NCBI RefSeq assembly: GCF_011761495.1
Contig: NZ_JAASRU010000017.1
Span: 1 to 43,979, forward strand
Origin: Alkalibacillus almallahensis
Lineage (GTDB): Bacteria > Bacillota > Bacilli > Bacillales > Alkalibacillaceae
DNA length: 43,979 nucleotides
Direction of reading: 5' to 3'
Shown: piece after piece, positions 2,845 to 43,979 of the stretch
Layout of the letters: every line of letters begins with the position of its first letter
How positions within the stretch are numbered: position 1 is the first letter of the stretch
The notes under the pieces: model-generated
What the model was told of the DNA's origin: nothing
What the model saw: the letters and a program-made list of their open reading frames with translations, nothing else
Databases searched by the model: none
Position numbers and translations under genes: made by a program

Positions 2845-2942
2845 GTATTTCAATAGTTCGTAAAGTTATTAAATAAGTATGGAGATTTATTTAATAACTA
2901 AAAGCAAAAATTTAAAAATCGAAGTGAATAATTTAAAAACTT
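2845..2942. repeat. 21-bp periodic AT-palindrome array A (5 units)
   Basis: Five degenerate 14-15-nt cores related to TTATYTMATAA or its complement lie at about 2845-2858, 2864-2878, 2885-2899, 2908-2921 and 2928-2942. Their centres are 19-22 nt apart, and the 5-8-nt spacers are richer in G. The array starts 5 nt after the terminator T-tract. It belongs to a family of six arrays in this window. Confidence 0.65.
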
Positions 2943-9578: not shown

Positions 9579-11378
9579 ATGGCGAAGGAGATCAAAACGA
9601 GAGAGGAAGTCCCAACTGAATTGACTTGGGATTTGGAAGCCATTTTTAAAACGGATGAAGCTTGGGAAGAAGCGCTACAAGCTTTACATGATGAATTACC
9701 TAAGATTACAGCATATAAAGGGAAAATCGCTGAGTCATCTGATAATTTATTAGCGGTTTTACAACTAGAAGATGATTTTCAAACACGTTTACAAAAAGTA
9801 TTTGTCTATTCACACATGCGTTCAGATCAAGATACAGCGAATAGTAAGTATCAGGACCAAGATGCACGGGCAACGTCACTTGTTACGCAAGTTATGAGTA
9901 CGTTTAGCTATGTAACACCTGAAATATTGGCCATGGATGATGCGACAATTGAAAAGTTTATTGCTGAGAATGATGAACTGAAGCATTATGAGAAGACACT
10001 GCGTGACATTATGAAATCTCGACCTCATGTTTTATCAGAGAAAGAAGAATCACTATTAGCAGAAGTCTCTGAGGTCACACAGACCCCTGGGAATGCGTTT
10101 GGTATGTTAAACAATGCAGATATCGAATTTCCAACGATTACGGATGAGAATGGGGAAGAGACGCAATTATCGCATGGACGTTTTCGTGACTTTTTAGACT
10201 CAAAAGATCGCAATGTCCGAAAACAAGCATTTGATGCAATGTACGATACGTTTGGTCAGTACCAAAATACGTTTTCAGCGACATTAAGTGGGCAAGTAAA
10301 GAAGGCAAACTTCTTTGCGAAGGCGCGTAATTATAATTCAGCACGAGAAGCGGCGTTAGACAAGAATAATATTTCAGAACAAGTTTATGATAATTTACTT
10401 GAAGCGATTAATGATCGTTTACCGTCACTTCATCGTTACATGAAATTGAAAAAGCGTATGCTTGAAGTAGATGAGTTACACATGTATGACATCTATACAC
10501 CGCTTGTTGATGAGAAAATGGATGTGACGATTGAAGAAGCAAAGGATTGGGTTCTTAAAGGCTTAGCTCCGTTAGGGGAAGAGTACACCTCCATTGTTCA
10601 AAAAGGTTATAACGAACGTTGGATCGATTGGCTTGAGACAAAAGGTAAACGCAGTGGCGCTTACTCATCTGGTGGTTATTTAACTAATCCGTATATCTTG
10701 ATGAATTGGCAGGATAATGTGGATAATTTATTTACTTTGGCTCATGAGTTGGGTCATTCATTACACAGTTATTATACACATCAGAATCAAGCACCGCGTT
10801 ATGGTAACTATTCTATTTTTGTGGCTGAAGTTGCTTCAACAACTAATGAGGCGTTGTTGAATGACTATATGCTTAAGACGCTTGATAGTAAACAAAAGAA
10901 ACTTTATTTGCTTAATAATTTCTTAGAAGGTTTCCGTGGAACTGTATTCCGTCAGACGATGTTTGCAGAGTTTGAACATGAAATTCATCAACGCGAGCAA
11001 CAAGGTGAAGCGCTGACAGCTGAAAAATTAACCGATATTTATTATAAACTTAACCAAAAGTATTTCGGTGACGATGTTCATGTTGATGAAAAGATCGGGC
11101 TTGAATGGGCTCGTATTCCGCATTTTTATATGGGATATTACGTCTATCAATATGCAACAGGTTATTCAGCGGCGACAGCTTTAGCCGCTAAGATATTAGA
11201 AGAAGGGGACCCAGCTGTTGAGAAATTCAAAGACTTCTTGAAAGCAGGAAGCAGCGAAGACCCTATTGATGTATTGAAGAAAGCTGGCGTGGATATGACA
11301 GAGAAGGCGCCAATTTTAGAAGCATTAGATGTATTTGATGCCAAATTAGATGAATTTGAAGCATTATTAAATGAATAA
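9579..11378 (+). CDS. pepF: Oligoendopeptidase F
   Basis: This cytoplasmic M3-family zinc metallopeptidase cleaves oligopeptides of about 7-17 residues. The 599-residue length fits the family. The zinc site HELGH lies at about residues 389-393 (FTLAHELGHSLHS), with the downstream Glu in FVAEVASTTNEALL as third ligand. The C-terminal segment IPHFYMGYYVYQYATGYSAA carries the Tyr-rich substrate-binding motif of M3B enzymes. GCGGGAGG precedes the ATG. It follows coiA, as in B. subtilis (yjbG), and ends at a strong terminator. Confidence 0.96.
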   Translation: MAKEIKTREEVPTELTWDLEAIFKTDEAWEEALQALHDELPKITAYKGKIAESSDNLLAVLQLEDDFQTRLQKVFVYSHMRSDQDTANSKYQDQDARATSLVTQVMSTFSYVTPEILAMDDATIEKFIAENDELKHYEKTLRDIMKSRPHVLSEKEESLLAEVSEVTQTPGNAFGMLNNADIEFPTITDENGEETQLSHGRFRDFLDSKDRNVRKQAFDAMYDTFGQYQNTFSATLSGQVKKANFFAKARNYNSAREAALDKNNISEQVYDNLLEAINDRLPSLHRYMKLKKRMLEVDELHMYDIYTPLVDEKMDVTIEEAKDWVLKGLAPLGEEYTSIVQKGYNERWIDWLETKGKRSGAYSSGGYLTNPYILMNWQDNVDNLFTLAHELGHSLHSYYTHQNQAPRYGNYSIFVAEVASTTNEALLNDYMLKTLDSKQKKLYLLNNFLEGFRGTVFRQTMFAEFEHEIHQREQQGEALTAEKLTDIYYKLNQKYFGDDVHVDEKIGLEWARIPHFYMGYYVYQYATGYSAATALAAKILEEGDPAVEKFKDFLKAGSSEDPIDVLKKAGVDMTEKAPILEALDVFDAKLDEFEALLNE

Positions 11379-11428: not shown

Positions 11429-11549
11429 GATTGTTTAATAATGTGAACACATTATTAAACAATGTTTCAAGTTTATCGAACAATCCTACAAGTTTATTAA
11501 ACAGTTGAAGAGGATTGTTTAACAATTTCATGTGATTATTTCAAAATCG
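11429..11549. repeat. 21-bp periodic AT-palindrome array B (6 units)
   Basis: Six cores are centred at about 11436, 11457, 11478, 11498, 11520 and 11542, so spacing is 20-22 nt. Examples are ATTGTTTAATAAT, ATTATTAAACAAT and GTTTATTAAACAGT; several are near-perfect palindromes. The array begins 13 nt after the pepF terminator, and its last unit overlaps the 3' end of the small membrane protein gene at 11541-11720. Confidence 0.7.
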
Positions 11550-17556: not shown

Positions 17557-18333
17557 ATGAATTTTTCTTTAGAAGGTAAGACATATGTTGTGATGGGTGT
17601 TGCGAACCGCCGTAGTATTGCTTGGGGGATTGCACAAGCACTACACAATGCAGGAGCACGCTTAGTTTTTACGTATGCGAATGAACGATTTGAGAAACCA
17701 GTTCGTGAGTTGGCAGATTCGTTAGACCGCGACGATTCGTTGTTTTACGAATGTGACGTAACAGATGATGAAGCGATCAAGCAGACGTTTACAAGTATTA
17801 AAGAAGATGTTGGCGTGATTCATGGCTTGGCACATTGTATCGCATTTGCGAATCGTGATGACTTAAACGGCGAATTCGTGGATACGTCTCGTGATGGTTT
17901 CTTATTATCACAAAATATCAGTGCGTACTCATTAGCAGCAGTTGCACGTGAATCCAAAGACTTGATGACAGAAGGTGGAAGCATCGTAACGCTCACATAT
18001 CTTGGTGGCGAGCGCGTCGTGCAAAACTATAATGTCATGGGTGTTGCGAAGGCAAGCCTTGATGCGACGATGAAGTATACAGCAAATGATTTAGGTAAGC
18101 ATGGAATTCGTGTGAACGCAATTTCAGCAGGTCCAATTCGTACGTTGTCAGCGAAAGGTGTTGGCGATTTTAATTCAATTTTACAAGAAATCGAAGAACG
18201 CGCACCTTTACGTAAGCCGGTCACGCAAGAAGAAGTCGGTGATGTTGCTTACTTCTTAATGAGTGATCTATCTCGCGGTATGACAGGCGAAATCCTCCAT
18301 GTTGACTCTGGTTTTAACATTTTAGGTAAATAA
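17557..18333 (+). CDS. fabI: Enoyl-[acyl-carrier-protein] reductase (NADH)
   Basis: FabI reduces the trans-2-enoyl-ACP at the end of each fatty acid elongation round. The 258-residue SDR-type protein has GVANRRSIAWGIA (cofactor loop), CDVTDD, the active-site pair Tyr148 (TLTYLGGER) and Tyr158-x6-Lys165 (YNVMGVAK), and AGPIRTLSAKGV, the flexible substrate-binding loop that triclosan-type inhibitors order. A TCAGGAGG site precedes the ATG. It is adjacent to cotO, as in B. subtilis, and is probably controlled by FapR through the site at 17499-17515. It ends at a strong terminator. Confidence 0.97.
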   Translation: MNFSLEGKTYVVMGVANRRSIAWGIAQALHNAGARLVFTYANERFEKPVRELADSLDRDDSLFYECDVTDDEAIKQTFTSIKEDVGVIHGLAHCIAFANRDDLNGEFVDTSRDGFLLSQNISAYSLAAVARESKDLMTEGGSIVTLTYLGGERVVQNYNVMGVAKASLDATMKYTANDLGKHGIRVNAISAGPIRTLSAKGVGDFNSILQEIEERAPLRKPVTQEEVGDVAYFLMSDLSRGMTGEILHVDSGFNILGK

Positions 18334-18348
18334 TTAAATATTAGTGAT

Positions 18349-18383
18349 AAAAAGCTCAACCTTTGCGGGTTGAGCTTTTTTTA
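18349..18383 (+). terminator. Intrinsic terminator behind fabI
   Basis: Arms 18349-18361 and 18368-18380 (13 bp) with a 6-nt loop run into a T-tract. Confidence 0.92.
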
Positions 18384-18401
18384 TTCAAGAGCAGCGCTTG
18401 A

Positions 18402-18573
18402 ATTTATTAAATAAATGCGGGTATTTATGAGATAAGTGCGTTAAGTTTTGAAATAAATAGGTGGATTAATCTAATAAGATAAAGGCGGATGCGAAGTTTT
18501 GAAATAATTTGAGCCATTTATGAGATAAGTAAATGGATTTTTGAAATAAATAAGTGGAATTATTTCAAAAGTG
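18402..18573. repeat. 21-bp periodic AT-palindrome array C (8 units)
   Basis: This is the longest array of the family. Cores are centred at about 18409, 18430, 18451, 18472, 18502, 18523, 18544 and 18565, giving steps of 21, 21, 21, 30, 21, 21, 21. Unit types include ATTTATTAAATAAAT, ATTTATGAGATAAGT (twice), AGTTTTGAAATAAAT and AATTATTTCAAAAGT. Spacers are 5-7 nt and G-rich (for example GCGGG, AGGTGG, AAATGG). It starts 19 nt after the fabI terminator and ends just before the cotO promoter. Confidence 0.8.
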
Positions 18574-19032: not shown

Positions 19033-19240
19033 GGCTCTGTTAAAGTCCGTTGTTGAAATTGTGATCCGCTCTCGGTGGACGCTTTCCGCGGGCACGGCTC
19101 GAGCCTCCTCGGCCGAAAAGCGTGGCCTGCGGGGTCTCGAGACACGTGCTATTCCCGCAGGAGTCGCCACCTTCGCTTCTCACAATTCAACAACTCAGTG
19201 CTACATCAGTTGAAAGTCAACACTAAACTTTAACAGAGCT
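19033..19240 (+). mobile_element. 208-bp MITE-like element, copy 1
   Basis: The element has terminal inverted repeats GGCTCTGTTAAAGT (left) and its complement (right, last base T instead of C) and is flanked by a perfect 8-bp direct duplication AAATAAAA (19025-19032 and 19241-19248). The interior is clearly GC-richer than the surroundings, contains no credible gene, and has several CTCGAG-centred short palindromes. By my alignment it matches copy 2 (20226-20433, opposite orientation) at 204 of 208 positions. It is non-autonomous; the mobilising transposase is not in the window. Similar GC-rich motifs are familiar from other Bacillaceae genomes (memory, unverified). Confidence 0.85.
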
Positions 19241-20225: not shown

Positions 20226-20433
20226 GGCTCTGTTAAAGTTTAGTGTTGACTTTCAACTGATGTAGCACTGAGTTGTTGAATTGTGAGAAGCGAAGGTGGC
20301 GACTCCTGCGGGAACAGCACGTGTCTCGAGACCCCGCAGGCCACGCTTTTCGGCCGAGGAGGCTCGAGCCGTGCCCGCGGAAAGCGTCCACCGAAAGCGG
20401 GTCACAATTTCAACAACGGACTTTAACAGAGCC
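20226..20433 (-). mobile_element. 208-bp MITE-like element, copy 2 (inverted)
   Basis: This is the same element as 19033-19240 in opposite orientation, with complete GGCTCTGTTAAAG/CTTTAACAGAGCC ends. It is flanked by near-perfect 8-bp duplications TAGTATTT (20218-20225) and TAGTTTTT (20434-20441). It has no coding capacity. The right duplication overlaps the first unit of the 21-bp array D. Confidence 0.85.
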
Positions 20434-20434
20434 T

Positions 20435-20512
20435 AGTTTTTAAATAAATGGTGCTAGTTATTTAAAAAATCAGAGCATTTATTTCATAAATAAGAGGAAT
20501 TATCTCATTAAT
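20435..20512. repeat. 21-bp periodic AT-palindrome array D (4 units)
   Basis: Cores AGTTTTTAAATAAAT, AGTTATTTAAAAAAT, ATTTATTTCATAAAT and AATTATCTCATTAAT are centred at 20442, 20463, 20484 and 20505, exactly 21 nt apart each time. Spacers are 6 nt. The array directly abuts MITE copy 2. Confidence 0.78.
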
Positions 20513-27582: not shown

Positions 27583-27614
27583 AAATTTAACAAGCAAATA
27601 ATTTTAATGTAACA

Positions 27615-27788
27615 AAGCTAGGGGTGCCATTTAATTGGCTGAGAGGAATGATTCCGACCCTTTGAACCTGATCTGGTTTGGACCAGCGTAGGGAAGTGTA
27701 GTTGCTCGGAGTTTATTGGATTGTGAATTATGTCCAAGATTATCCAAGTCAACCACTTTCTTATGTCTGGTATAAGAAAGTGGTTTTT
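27615..27788 (+). promoter_or_regulatory. TPP riboswitch with intrinsic terminator
   Basis: The aptamer (about 27615-27700) has the conserved Thi-box pieces GGGGTGCC, GGCTGAGAGG, CCCTTTGAACCTGATCTGG and CCAGCGTAGGGAAG. A terminator follows: arms 27751-27764 and 27772-27785 with a T-run to 27788. Binding of thiamin pyrophosphate should favour termination and shut down the tenA-to-thiE operon. Confidence 0.95.
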
Positions 27789-36861: not shown

Positions 36862-36895
36862 ACACAAAGTTTAATTGAAATGAAGCATTATTGTG

Positions 36896-36982
36896 TTCCC
36901 TACGCTGGTCTTAGCCAGTTCAGGTTCTAAGAGTCAGTATCTTACGGATACAATCTCAACCAGCAACACTGGTCCCCCTACA
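36896..36982 (-). promoter_or_regulatory. TPP riboswitch aptamer controlling thiY-thiZ
   Basis: On the minus strand the aptamer reads from TAGGGGG through GTTGAGA, GAACCTGAACTGG and ACCAGCGTAGGGAA, the conserved Thi-box elements. With the terminator at 36831-36861 it should switch off import when TPP is plentiful. It is the second TPP riboswitch in the window. Confidence 0.93.
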
Positions 36983-36997
36983 ACTTATGTCTATACG

Positions 36998-42070: not shown

Positions 42071-42102
42071 AAAACGTTCGAGTATACTCGGACGTTTTTT
42101 AA
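42071..42102 (+). terminator. Intrinsic terminator behind the oxidoreductase gene
   Basis: AAAACGTTCGAGT pairs with ACTCGGACGTTTT (one mismatch) around two bases, followed by T residues. Confidence 0.85.
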
Positions 42103-42115
42103 TGGTCACTCCGTT

Positions 42116-42215
42116 AATTTATTAGATAATCTAAAGGATTTATTTAATAAATAGGAGAAGTTATTTAATTACTAGAGGGAGTAATTTCAAAACGAGATCG
42201 GATTATCTAATAAAT
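42116..42215. repeat. 21-bp periodic AT-palindrome array E (5 units)
   Basis: Cores are centred at about 42123, 42145, 42166, 42187 and 42208 (steps 22, 21, 21, 21). Examples are ATTTATTTAATAAAT, AGTTATTTAATTACT and GATTATCTAATAAAT. Spacers are 6-7 nt and purine-rich (AGGAGA, AGAGGG, AGATCG). It begins 15 nt after the terminator. Confidence 0.78.
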
Positions 42216-43769: not shown

Positions 43770-43847
43770 GTTTAACTAATAAATACCTCAGTTTTTTTAA
43801 ATAAAATGACGAGTTTTAGAAAAAGCTCATCCAATTATTTAATAACC
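43770..43847. repeat. 21-bp periodic AT-palindrome array F (4 units)
   Basis: Cores are centred at about 43777, 43798, 43819 and 43840 (steps of 21). They include GTTTAACTAATAAAT and AATTATTTAATAACC; the third (AGTTTTAGAAAAAGCT) is degenerate. The array lies between the holin-like gene and its terminator hairpin, unlike the others, which follow a terminator or a MITE. Confidence 0.6.
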
Positions 43848-43868: not shown

Positions 43869-43891
43869 GAAGCTGACATGACGTCAGCTTC
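43869..43891 (+). terminator. Terminator hairpin cut off by the terminal repeat
   Basis: GAAGCTGAC (43869-43877) pairs with GTCAGCTTC (43883-43891). A-rich sequence precedes it, but the expected T-run is replaced by the start of the terminal repeat, as if the repeat had inserted into the T-tract. Confidence 0.65.
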
Positions 43892-43979
43892 AGGCTGTCG
43901 AGAAAGTCTCGGCAGCCTGATTTTTTTGCATAAACTTTAACAATTCACCGCGTTAATTTGATATAATAGAAGTATAATA
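43889..43979 (+). repeat. Terminal repeat, right copy (inverted copy at 5-95)
   Basis: Identical over 91 bases to the reverse complement of 5-95. It opens with a 13-bp hairpin (arms 43891-43903 and 43907-43919) and seven T residues (43921-43927), followed by an AT-rich promoter-like stretch with two TATAAT hexamers that runs off the window. No coding sequence is visible in the part present. Confidence 0.85.

What the first reader, a model, noticed from the sequence alone, without database searches (positions are those of the whole stretch)
18402..18573. A family of 21-bp-periodic palindromic arrays in six intergenic regions
Seen directly: about 32 degenerate AT-rich 14-15-mers, each close to TTATYTMATAA or its complement TTATKARATAA, occur as arrays at 2845-2942, 11429-11549, 18402-18573, 20435-20512, 42116-42215 and 43770-43847. 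Centre-to-centre steps are almost always 21 nt (array D 21/21/21; array C 21/21/21/30/21/21/21; array B 21/21/20/22/22). Core sequences vary while the period is held, so selection or a copying mechanism acts on spacing. Twenty-one bp is two helical turns, which would place every site on the same face of the DNA. Inference: a cooperative binding array for an architectural or regulatory protein, or the fossil of an unknown expansion process. I know no named system with these properties.
Basis: partly seen in the sequence, partly recalled or inferred. Interest (0 to 1): 0.78.

Follow-up and report, generated by a model that had tools for sequence, protein, structure and literature searches.

The report
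Two-helix-turn repeat arrays between bacterial genes
Between many genes of a salt-loving Bacillus relative lie rows of short DNA 'words' repeated at a fixed step of 20-21 bases (two turns of the double helix); the words differ between families and species while the step stays the same, which looks like a row of docking sites for an unidentified DNA-binding protein.

Summary
The window lies in an Alkalibacillus genome and has six arrays, 31 units by register, nearly all 21 bp apart. In 839 kb of this genome a strict finder allowing periods of 13-40 bp found 32 arrays, 31 at 20/21 bp and one at 19 (of the window's six it passes only B); five shuffled copies gave one in total. There are about six core 'words', two palindromic (TTATnwnATAA, TTGTnwnACAA) and four not, each with a variable spacer of about 10 bp. 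Congeners, another genus and Planococcus/Bhargavaea have arrays of the same step, mostly with other words; in the one slot compared (after pepF) the word differs between species. Between close relatives cores diverge half as much as spacers (9% vs 21%). Arrays favour convergent gaps and mostly start near or just beyond terminators. Best explanation: helically phased sites for oligomerising DNA-binding proteins that coat or insulate DNA between transcription units; the binder is unidentified. Neutral minisatellites are the main rival. The open papers searched listed no description.

The parts
2845..2942 (.). Array A, F1-type cores (TTATTAAATAA, TTATTTAATAA and two degenerate units), steps of 21, just beyond an intrinsic terminator (about 2811-2840, by eye) of the 1582-2799 gene
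   Evidence: 21 bp shorter in A. salilacus L029
11429..11549 (.). Array B, F2 core ATTGTTWAACAAT, six units, steps of 21, in the convergent gap beyond the pepF terminator
   Evidence: F2 array at the same place in A. salilacus, another 21-bp word at the same place in A. haloalkaliphilus NBRC 103110
18402..18573 (.). Array C, F1 cores, eight units 21/21/21/30/21/21/21, beyond the fabI terminator (about 18350-18385, by eye)
   Evidence: only 3 units in A. salilacus L029 with the same outer ends
20435..20512 (.). Array D, F1 cores, four units, steps of 21; a MITE-like element abuts it on the left
42116..42215 (.). Array E, F1 cores, five units, steps of 21, beyond a terminator (about 42073-42100, by eye)
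43770..43847 (.). Array F, weak F1-like array, four units, steps of 21; here the terminator-like hairpin (about 43870-43925, by eye) lies after the array
9579..11378 (+). pepF (oligoendopeptidase F), upstream neighbour of array B and the anchor for comparing that slot across species
17557..18333 (+). fabI (enoyl-ACP reductase), upstream neighbour of array C

Best explanation
Each array is a row of sequence-specific binding sites (a core of about 11-13 bp plus a spacer of about 10 bp) held at two helical turns, so that identical protein units bind on the same face of the DNA and touch one another, coating or wrapping 80-200 bp (up to about 500 bp) of DNA between transcription units. Several related or unrelated binders, each with its own word, would serve the array families of one genome; words drift between species together with their binders, while the two-turn geometry and the favoured location (near or beyond terminators, convergent gaps, rarely divergent promoter gaps) persist. 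The likely effect is architectural or insulating: a nucleoprotein block that separates neighbouring transcription units or silences spurious initiation. Shown: array structure, period, several core families, location bias, lower core divergence, unit gain and loss, different words in different species. Inferred: protein binding, cooperativity, insulation. Not known: the protein.
For: Period: of 32 arrays in the own-genome sample 31 are at 20/21 with 13-40 allowed, against one array in five shuffles. Steps of exactly 21: 103 of 162 for F1/F2 and 61 of 71 for F3; steps of 20 or 21: 47 of 76 for F4/F5 and 14 of 23 for F6. All 47 exact F3 pairs in two genomes have a 10-nt gap with 8-12 allowed; all 14 F2 pair places have a 10-nt gap with 6-14 allowed. 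Relatives use mostly other words at the same step, some arrays alternating 20,21,20,21. Constraint on cores: 65/703 core against 76/367 spacer substitutions over 11 shared arrays, p = 3e-7, flank 90/626; the same with cores defined in the other species, and reversed by a 10-bp shift of the mask. Location: arrays in 14 of 37 convergent, 20 of 194 co-directional and 4 of 71 divergent gaps of at least 120 bp; 43 of 63 terminator-to-array distances lie between -25 and +124 bp.
Against: No binding protein or binding datum. One genome needs several binders, and the one family tested (Lrp/AsnC, PF01037) has a single member in it. Arrays are patchy: 0 in about 345 kb from 18 order-level relatives; 3 arrays in about 292 kb from 16 other relatives, 2 of them at 20/21; none in the 18 Halobacillus loci. 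They are uneven within the genome: 3 of 107 eligible gaps on C1+C2 against 31 of 124 elsewhere. The step is more rigid than helical phasing alone would need, as copying would give. G001 has two arrays alternating 26/27 bp (about 2.5 turns), and array C holds a 30-bp step (17 in A. salilacus). 18 of 63 distances put the array 94-490 bp on the transcript side of the nearest terminator-like hairpin, and no matched control was made for these distances.
Confidence: 0.5

Rival explanations
1. Neutral minisatellites: tandem duplication by slippage or unequal exchange in unconstrained DNA beyond terminators, with no bound protein; words are shared because arrays were copied about (for example inside MITEs).
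For: Four of the 11 shared arrays differ by one clean unit of 20 or 21 bp between relatives (A, B, C3:24597, C3:67167), and array C by about five units. Some arrays show recent unit duplication (C5:86281; G006, about 25 units). Five F3 arrays share a MITE-like frame. The step is almost rigid. Arrays lie where selection is weakest.
Against: Cores diverge half as much as spacers. Unrelated words in several genera converge on 20-21 bp with few other periods. F3 arrays with unrelated spacers keep the same 11-mer.
Confidence: 0.22
2. Sites of a recombination, replication or mobility process (iteron-like titration sites, or attachment or recombination points for gene blocks) rather than insulation.
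For: Plasmid and second-chromosome iterons are direct repeats of similar spacing (recalled). Three of the larger synteny breaks between this genome and G005 fall in arrays (C3 about 26.85, 42.7 and 47.6 kb). F3 cores face against the GC-skew sign in 10 of the 12 arrays that lie in the stretches.
Against: Three other large breaks (C3 50.7, 55.4-63.6 and 76.2 kb) are not at listed arrays. 44 arrays in a third of one genome and several words do not resemble an origin. Polarity has exceptions (C7, C16).
Confidence: 0.12
3. RNA elements: the arrays act in transcripts as 3' UTR repeats.
For: They sit next to 3' ends; 18 of 63 distances place the array well on the transcript side of a terminator-like hairpin. 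Within F3 the three co-directional cases read (C3:28074, C5:82076, C5:86281) all face against the genes.
Against: 43 of 63 start near or beyond the hairpin. In F5 the orientation differs between co-directional cases (C5:3647 against, C5:9892 with the genes). Steps of 20 and 21 mix. No Rfam match at the window's arrays.
Confidence: 0.06
4. Coding: 21 bp is seven codons, so arrays encode heptad-like peptides.
For: One array in congener G001 is spanned by a 107-aa open frame with a 7-residue repeat.
Against: 20-bp families and 20/21 alternation break the frame. Window arrays hold stops in several frames (read, not counted). That frame matches no NCBIfam family.
Confidence: 0.01

Closest known systems
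Iteron arrays of plasmid and secondary-chromosome origins (recalled)
   Same: Short direct repeats with family-specific sequence, about two helical turns apart, bound cooperatively
   Different: Here 44 arrays in a third of one chromosome, several words per genome, between ordinary genes, no initiator gene recognised beside them in the places read
Lrp/BarR-type operator arrays (PMC10201364, passages seen)
   Same: 4-5 regularly spaced semi-palindromic sites two helical turns apart, octamer proposed to wrap the DNA
   Different: In the intergenic region of one divergent operon there; here mostly near or beyond terminators and genome-wide; one AsnC-type gene in this genome against about six core families
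REP/BIME elements of enterobacteria (recalled)
   Same: Extragenic, at 3' ends and convergent gaps, clustered, proposed architectural roles
   Different: REPs are hairpin-forming units without a 21-bp step; these cores are 11-13 bp, several not palindromic
Minisatellites / VNTRs
   Same: Tandem units, number differing between relatives
   Different: Half of each unit is conserved and half is not; period held at 20-21 across unrelated words
CRISPR arrays
   Same: Conserved repeat alternating with a variable spacer
   Different: Repeat 11-13 bp and imperfect, spacer about 10 bp and inherited with ordinary substitutions, many loci

Membership tests
CRISPR array | Near-identical direct repeats of more than 20 bp with unique spacers of more than 20 bp | tested here: not met
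   Cores 11-13 bp with variants, spacers about 10 bp
CRISPR array | Adjacent cas genes | not tested
   Neighbours read at several arrays look ordinary by eye, but no cas search was made
Iteron origin | Direct repeats at about two helical turns | tested here: met
   Steps 20-21
Iteron origin | Single origin locus | tested here: not met
   Many loci
Iteron origin | Cognate replication initiator beside the array | tested here: inconclusive
   None recognised by eye among the neighbours read; no family search for initiators was made
Lrp/AsnC operator array | Semi-palindromic sites, regular at two turns | tested here: inconclusive
   F1/F2 are odd palindromes with a W centre, F3-F6 are not
Lrp/AsnC operator array | An Lrp/AsnC paralogue for each word | tested here: not met
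   One PF01037 match in the own genome
REP/BIME | Extragenic, 3'-end/convergent location | tested here: met
   14 of 37 convergent, 20 of 194 co-directional, 4 of 71 divergent gaps
REP/BIME | Hairpin-forming REP unit and RAYT transposase | not tested
   Units were not folded; F3-F6 units do not look like hairpins by eye; RAYT not searched
Neutral minisatellite | Uniform divergence along the unit | tested here: not met
   Core 9.2% against spacer 20.7% over 11 arrays
Neutral minisatellite | Whole-unit copy-number change | tested here: inconclusive
   Clean 20/21-bp differences in four of 11 shared arrays; array C differs by 118 bp, not a multiple of 21
MITE | Terminal inverted repeats and dispersed copies | tested here: not met
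   Not a property of the arrays in general; five of the 12 F3 arrays displayed, of 14 found, lie inside a MITE-like frame

The most novel reading that the evidence does not exclude
Some Bacillales carry a chromosome-wide system of fast-evolving DNA-binding filament proteins and matching intergenic site arrays: the syntax (two-turn pitch, post-terminator slot) is conserved over genera while the vocabulary is replaced, even at the same slot, as with centromere satellites and their binders in eukaryotes.
Probability: 0.3. Interest if true: 0.9.

Novelty: new variant of a known kind. Interest (0 to 1): 0.7.

Why it matters
If the arrays bind proteins, they would be an overlooked layer of chromosome organisation in Gram-positive bacteria, acting between genes rather than at promoters, with recognition words that change between species while geometry is conserved. 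That would give a bacterial model for co-evolution of dispersed DNA arrays and their binders, and it is directly testable by pull-down with array DNA. It also gives a simple rule for recognising such DNA (20-21 bp step, constant word, random spacer) that gene-centred annotation misses or can turn into spurious open frames.

Tried and rejected
Rfam scan of the window at gathering thresholds: only two TPP riboswitches, nothing at the arrays. Search by eye for a cognate gene beside arrays: neighbours read at C3 60-82 kb, C5 0-12 kb, eleven F3 array places and six long arrays of relatives look ordinary; one neighbour of an F3 array (C5:85937-86221) looks like the DNA-binding sporulation regulator SpoIIID and was not taken further. 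Lrp/AsnC as general binder: one gene only. Polarity relative to GC skew: 10 of 12 F3 arrays in the stretches face against it, with C7 and C16 as exceptions; orientation labels between families are arbitrary, so not used as evidence. An origin-terminus gradient was considered from recalled B. subtilis gene positions and dropped as inconsistent. Arrays as rearrangement points: three large breaks fit, three do not, too few. Noc-type sites: 2 of 3 exact ATTTCCCGGGAAAT sites in the own-genome sample lie within 140 bp of an array, too few to use. Exact two-core patterns elsewhere: F3 in 2 of 60 genomes including the own one, F2 in 2 of 22 of the family including the own one, F1 in 1 of 61 of the phylum, the own one only, with one match of the reversed control in it; so these exact words look lineage-specific. 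Papers: eight searches of the open library aimed at such arrays and one on iterons; four gave lists, in whose titles and abstract openings I saw no description of such arrays, five gave nothing. Only PMC10201364 was opened, by passages. My own recollection also holds no such system, which proves nothing.

Limits: genes are crude longest open frames of at least 90 aa, so arrays under spurious frames are missed. Own-genome stretches were partly chosen because one search had hits there (C3, C5, C10, C16), so the density (44 arrays in 839 kb by the union criterion) is not an unbiased genome estimate. The strict finder is insensitive: it passes one of the window's six arrays and one in A. salilacus L029 where lag scanning gave six clusters. 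Internal gaps in the 11 alignments, flanks included, were eight of 1 base, two each of 2, 3 and 4, and one each of 5, 6, 10, 19, 20, and 62, and two of 21; only some are whole units. Rows dropped before counts: arrays lacking a flanking gene on one side (44 to 40), of 20 stretches fetched, 16 were examined (L174, L178, L186, L187 dropped as short), of 20 requested, 18 were examined (L198, L200 dropped as short). Notebook figures since recounted: '11 of 14' for F3 polarity is 10 of 12 measured; 'about 22 Halobacillus loci' is 18.

Full report
Where the window lies. Its pepF gene is 98% identical in protein to that of Alkalibacillus salilacus DSM 16460 (L029), then 85% to other Alkalibacillus. 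The genome held is 2.71 Mb in 36 contigs, the window being contig C17.

The observation. All six arrays are there. Laid out in rows of 21 bases, they give 31 units by register, with steps of 21 except one step of 30 in array C. Array B is uniform at 21, and its core is ATTGTTWAACAAT. Over the whole window, 21 is the only lag between 15 and 30 at which any 100-base stretch reaches 55% self-identity.

Not a local oddity. I took 838,864 bases of the same genome in stretches (with the window). Intergenic self-similarity peaks at lags 21, 42, 63 and 84 (35, 24, 20 and 15 clusters) and at 20, 40, 60 and 80 (14, 12, 8 and 5); every other lag from 10 to 89 gives 0-6. A strict finder that seeds on 12-mers, needs four or more units and allows any period from 13 to 40 returned 32 arrays: 19 at 21, 12 at 20, 1 at 19. 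It passes only array B of the window's six; a looser criterion (lag or finder) gives 44 arrays in the sample, five of them in the window. Five dinucleotide shuffles of the same intergenic DNA gave one array altogether, at 40.

Several words, one step. The arrays fall into families by core: F1 TTATnwnATAA and F2 TTGTnwnACAA (odd palindromes with a W centre that grade into each other), F3 TTTCGCYGTAT, F4 TTTAYCATCGAG, F5 TTWTCRGCGMC and F6 CGCTCWTTTAT (not palindromic); F5 and F6 step mostly by 20, the others by 21. F4 and F5 also resemble each other, so the number of independent words may be nearer four. F3 occurs 73 times as an exact 11-mer in the genome against 4 for the reversed control; 70 of the 73 are in 14 arrays, two of these with only two exact sites (my grouping of the positions). 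All 47 exact F3 pairs found in two genomes have a 10-base gap although 8 to 12 were allowed; all 14 F2 pair places have a 10-base gap with 6 to 14 allowed; F1 has it in 9 of 10 with 6 to 14 allowed, the reversed control giving one match. Successive core steps are exactly 21 in 103 of 162 (F1/F2) and 61 of 71 (F3), and 20 or 21 in 47 of 76 (F4/F5) and 14 of 23 (F6); shuffled DNA shows no such peak.

Relatives. Stretches of 60-100 kb from five congeners and one other genus of the family all hold arrays at 20-21 bp. G005 shares this genome's words; the others mostly use different ones (for example TTACCGAATA, GCGCCGATAAA, CGCCAAATAA, TTTCGCCGGAATA, AGCGGATA), and some arrays alternate strictly 20, 21, 20, 21. 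The strict finder's periods there: 4 of 6 arrays in G001 (the other two at 26), 5 of 5 in G002, 8 of 8 in G003, 1 of 1 in G004, 8 of 8 in G005 and 7 of 8 in G006 (the other at 40) are 20 or 21. In 80 named loci around pepF it returned 9 arrays, all at 20 or 21: three in two of the five Alkalibacillus loci, three adjoining pieces in one Bhargavaea locus, three in Planococcus-group loci; none in the 18 Halobacillus loci. Stretches of 16 other relatives gave three arrays, two of them at 20/21; 18 order-level relatives gave none in 345 kb. So the feature is patchy: dense in some genera, rare or absent in others.

Same slot, different word. Directly after the pepF terminator the window and A. salilacus have an F2 array. 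A. haloalkaliphilus NBRC 103110 has five units of AATAGCTCATAGA at 21 bp in the same place. A. haloalkaliphilus C5 and A. filiformis have what look like one or two leftover units, and Allobacillus halotolerans has a longer tandem repeat there with a different unit; A. aidingensis, Filobacillus and the two other Allobacillus show no array to the eye. This is the only slot I compared across species in this way.

Constraint. Eleven arrays shared with A. salilacus or congener G005 were aligned. Cores differ at 65 of 703 sites, spacers at 76 of 367, flanks at 90 of 626 (p = 3e-7 for core against spacer). Defining cores in the other species gives 63/686 against 78/384, and sliding the mask by 10 bp reverses the result. 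Four of the eleven (A, B, C3:24597, C3:67167) differ by one clean unit of 20 or 21 bp; array C has 8 units here and 3 in A. salilacus, a difference of 118 bp that is not a multiple of 21 because of the 30-bp step here and a 17-bp step there; small gaps also occur.

Location. Arrays occupy 14 of 37 convergent, 20 of 194 co-directional and 4 of 71 divergent gaps of at least 120 bp (my sums); in the relatives' samples 14, 18 and 4 arrays stand against 36, 124 and 52 such gaps. Of 63 distances between a terminator-like hairpin of a flanking gene and the array edge, 43 lie between -25 and +124, 18 between -490 and -94 and two beyond +300, so most arrays begin near or just beyond the hairpin; no matched control was made for these distances. 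The arrays are regional: 3 of 107 eligible gaps on C1+C2 against 31 of 124 elsewhere, p = 1e-6. That is unexplained.

What it is. A fixed two-turn pitch, constrained cores with freer spacers, several unrelated words and a position between transcription units fit rows of protein sites better than slippage alone. Slippage or unequal exchange plausibly supplies the raw copies; selection on cores and phase would keep them. The binder is unknown. One candidate family was checked, Lrp/AsnC, whose BarR member uses 4-5 sites two helical turns apart and is proposed to wrap DNA (PMC10201364, passages); this genome has one such gene, too few for all words. Insulation or architecture is inferred from location only.

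Mobile DNA. A MITE-like element (ends GGCTCTGTTAAAGT / ACTTTAACAGAGC) has two copies in the window, one abutting array D. Its left-end sequence matches 26 places in the own-genome stretches, and five F3 arrays sit inside it. This explains why some arrays share spacers in the same order, but not why F3 arrays with unrelated spacers share the word.

Novelty. Site arrays at two turns are known (iterons, recalled; Lrp-type operators), as are 3'-end repeats (REP, recalled). A chromosome-wide set with interchangeable words and a conserved pitch is not known to me, and the library searches listed nothing like it (one search asked about iterons). I file it as a new variant of a known kind because the binder, and so the function, is unproven.

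Noticed in passing
window 19033-19240 and 20226-20433: Two copies, in opposite orientation, of a roughly 200-bp MITE-like element with ends GGCTCTGTTAAAGT...ACTTTAACAGAGC and inner inverted repeat GTTGTTGAAATTGTGA; one abuts array D, with a possible 8-bp target duplication (by eye). Its left-end sequence matches 26 places in the own-genome stretches.
   Followed up: partly
L119 (C5) 422-1591: An IS256-type transposase gene (recognised by eye) lies between two pieces of an F5 array, as if it had landed in the array.
   Followed up: no
C3:40281 and C5:90730 (own genome): Exact Noc-type palindromes ATTTCCCGGGAAAT (motif recalled) lie 1 and 140 bp from F2 arrays; a third exact copy at C3:159806 is far from any array.
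   Followed up: partly
L167 5077-5400 (G001): An open frame of 107 aa with a 7-residue repeat is made by a 21-bp array and matches no NCBIfam family; such arrays may be annotated as hypothetical proteins elsewhere.
   Followed up: partly
L167 14141-14496 (G001): An array with a 53-bp double unit whose two CCGG-centred cores alternate at 26 and 27 bp, the clearest other period seen.
   Followed up: partly
own genome C1 and C2 against C3, C5, C10, C16, C17: Arrays are strongly uneven between contigs even per eligible gap (3 of 107 against 31 of 124); the cause is unknown.
   Followed up: partly
C3 about 26.85, 42.7 and 47.6 kb against G005: Gene blocks of about 3-11 kb present in G005 but not here are inserted in or at the places of arrays.
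   Followed up: partly
window 27610-27711 (+) and 36880-36989 (-): Two TPP riboswitches (Rfam RF00059).
   Followed up: no
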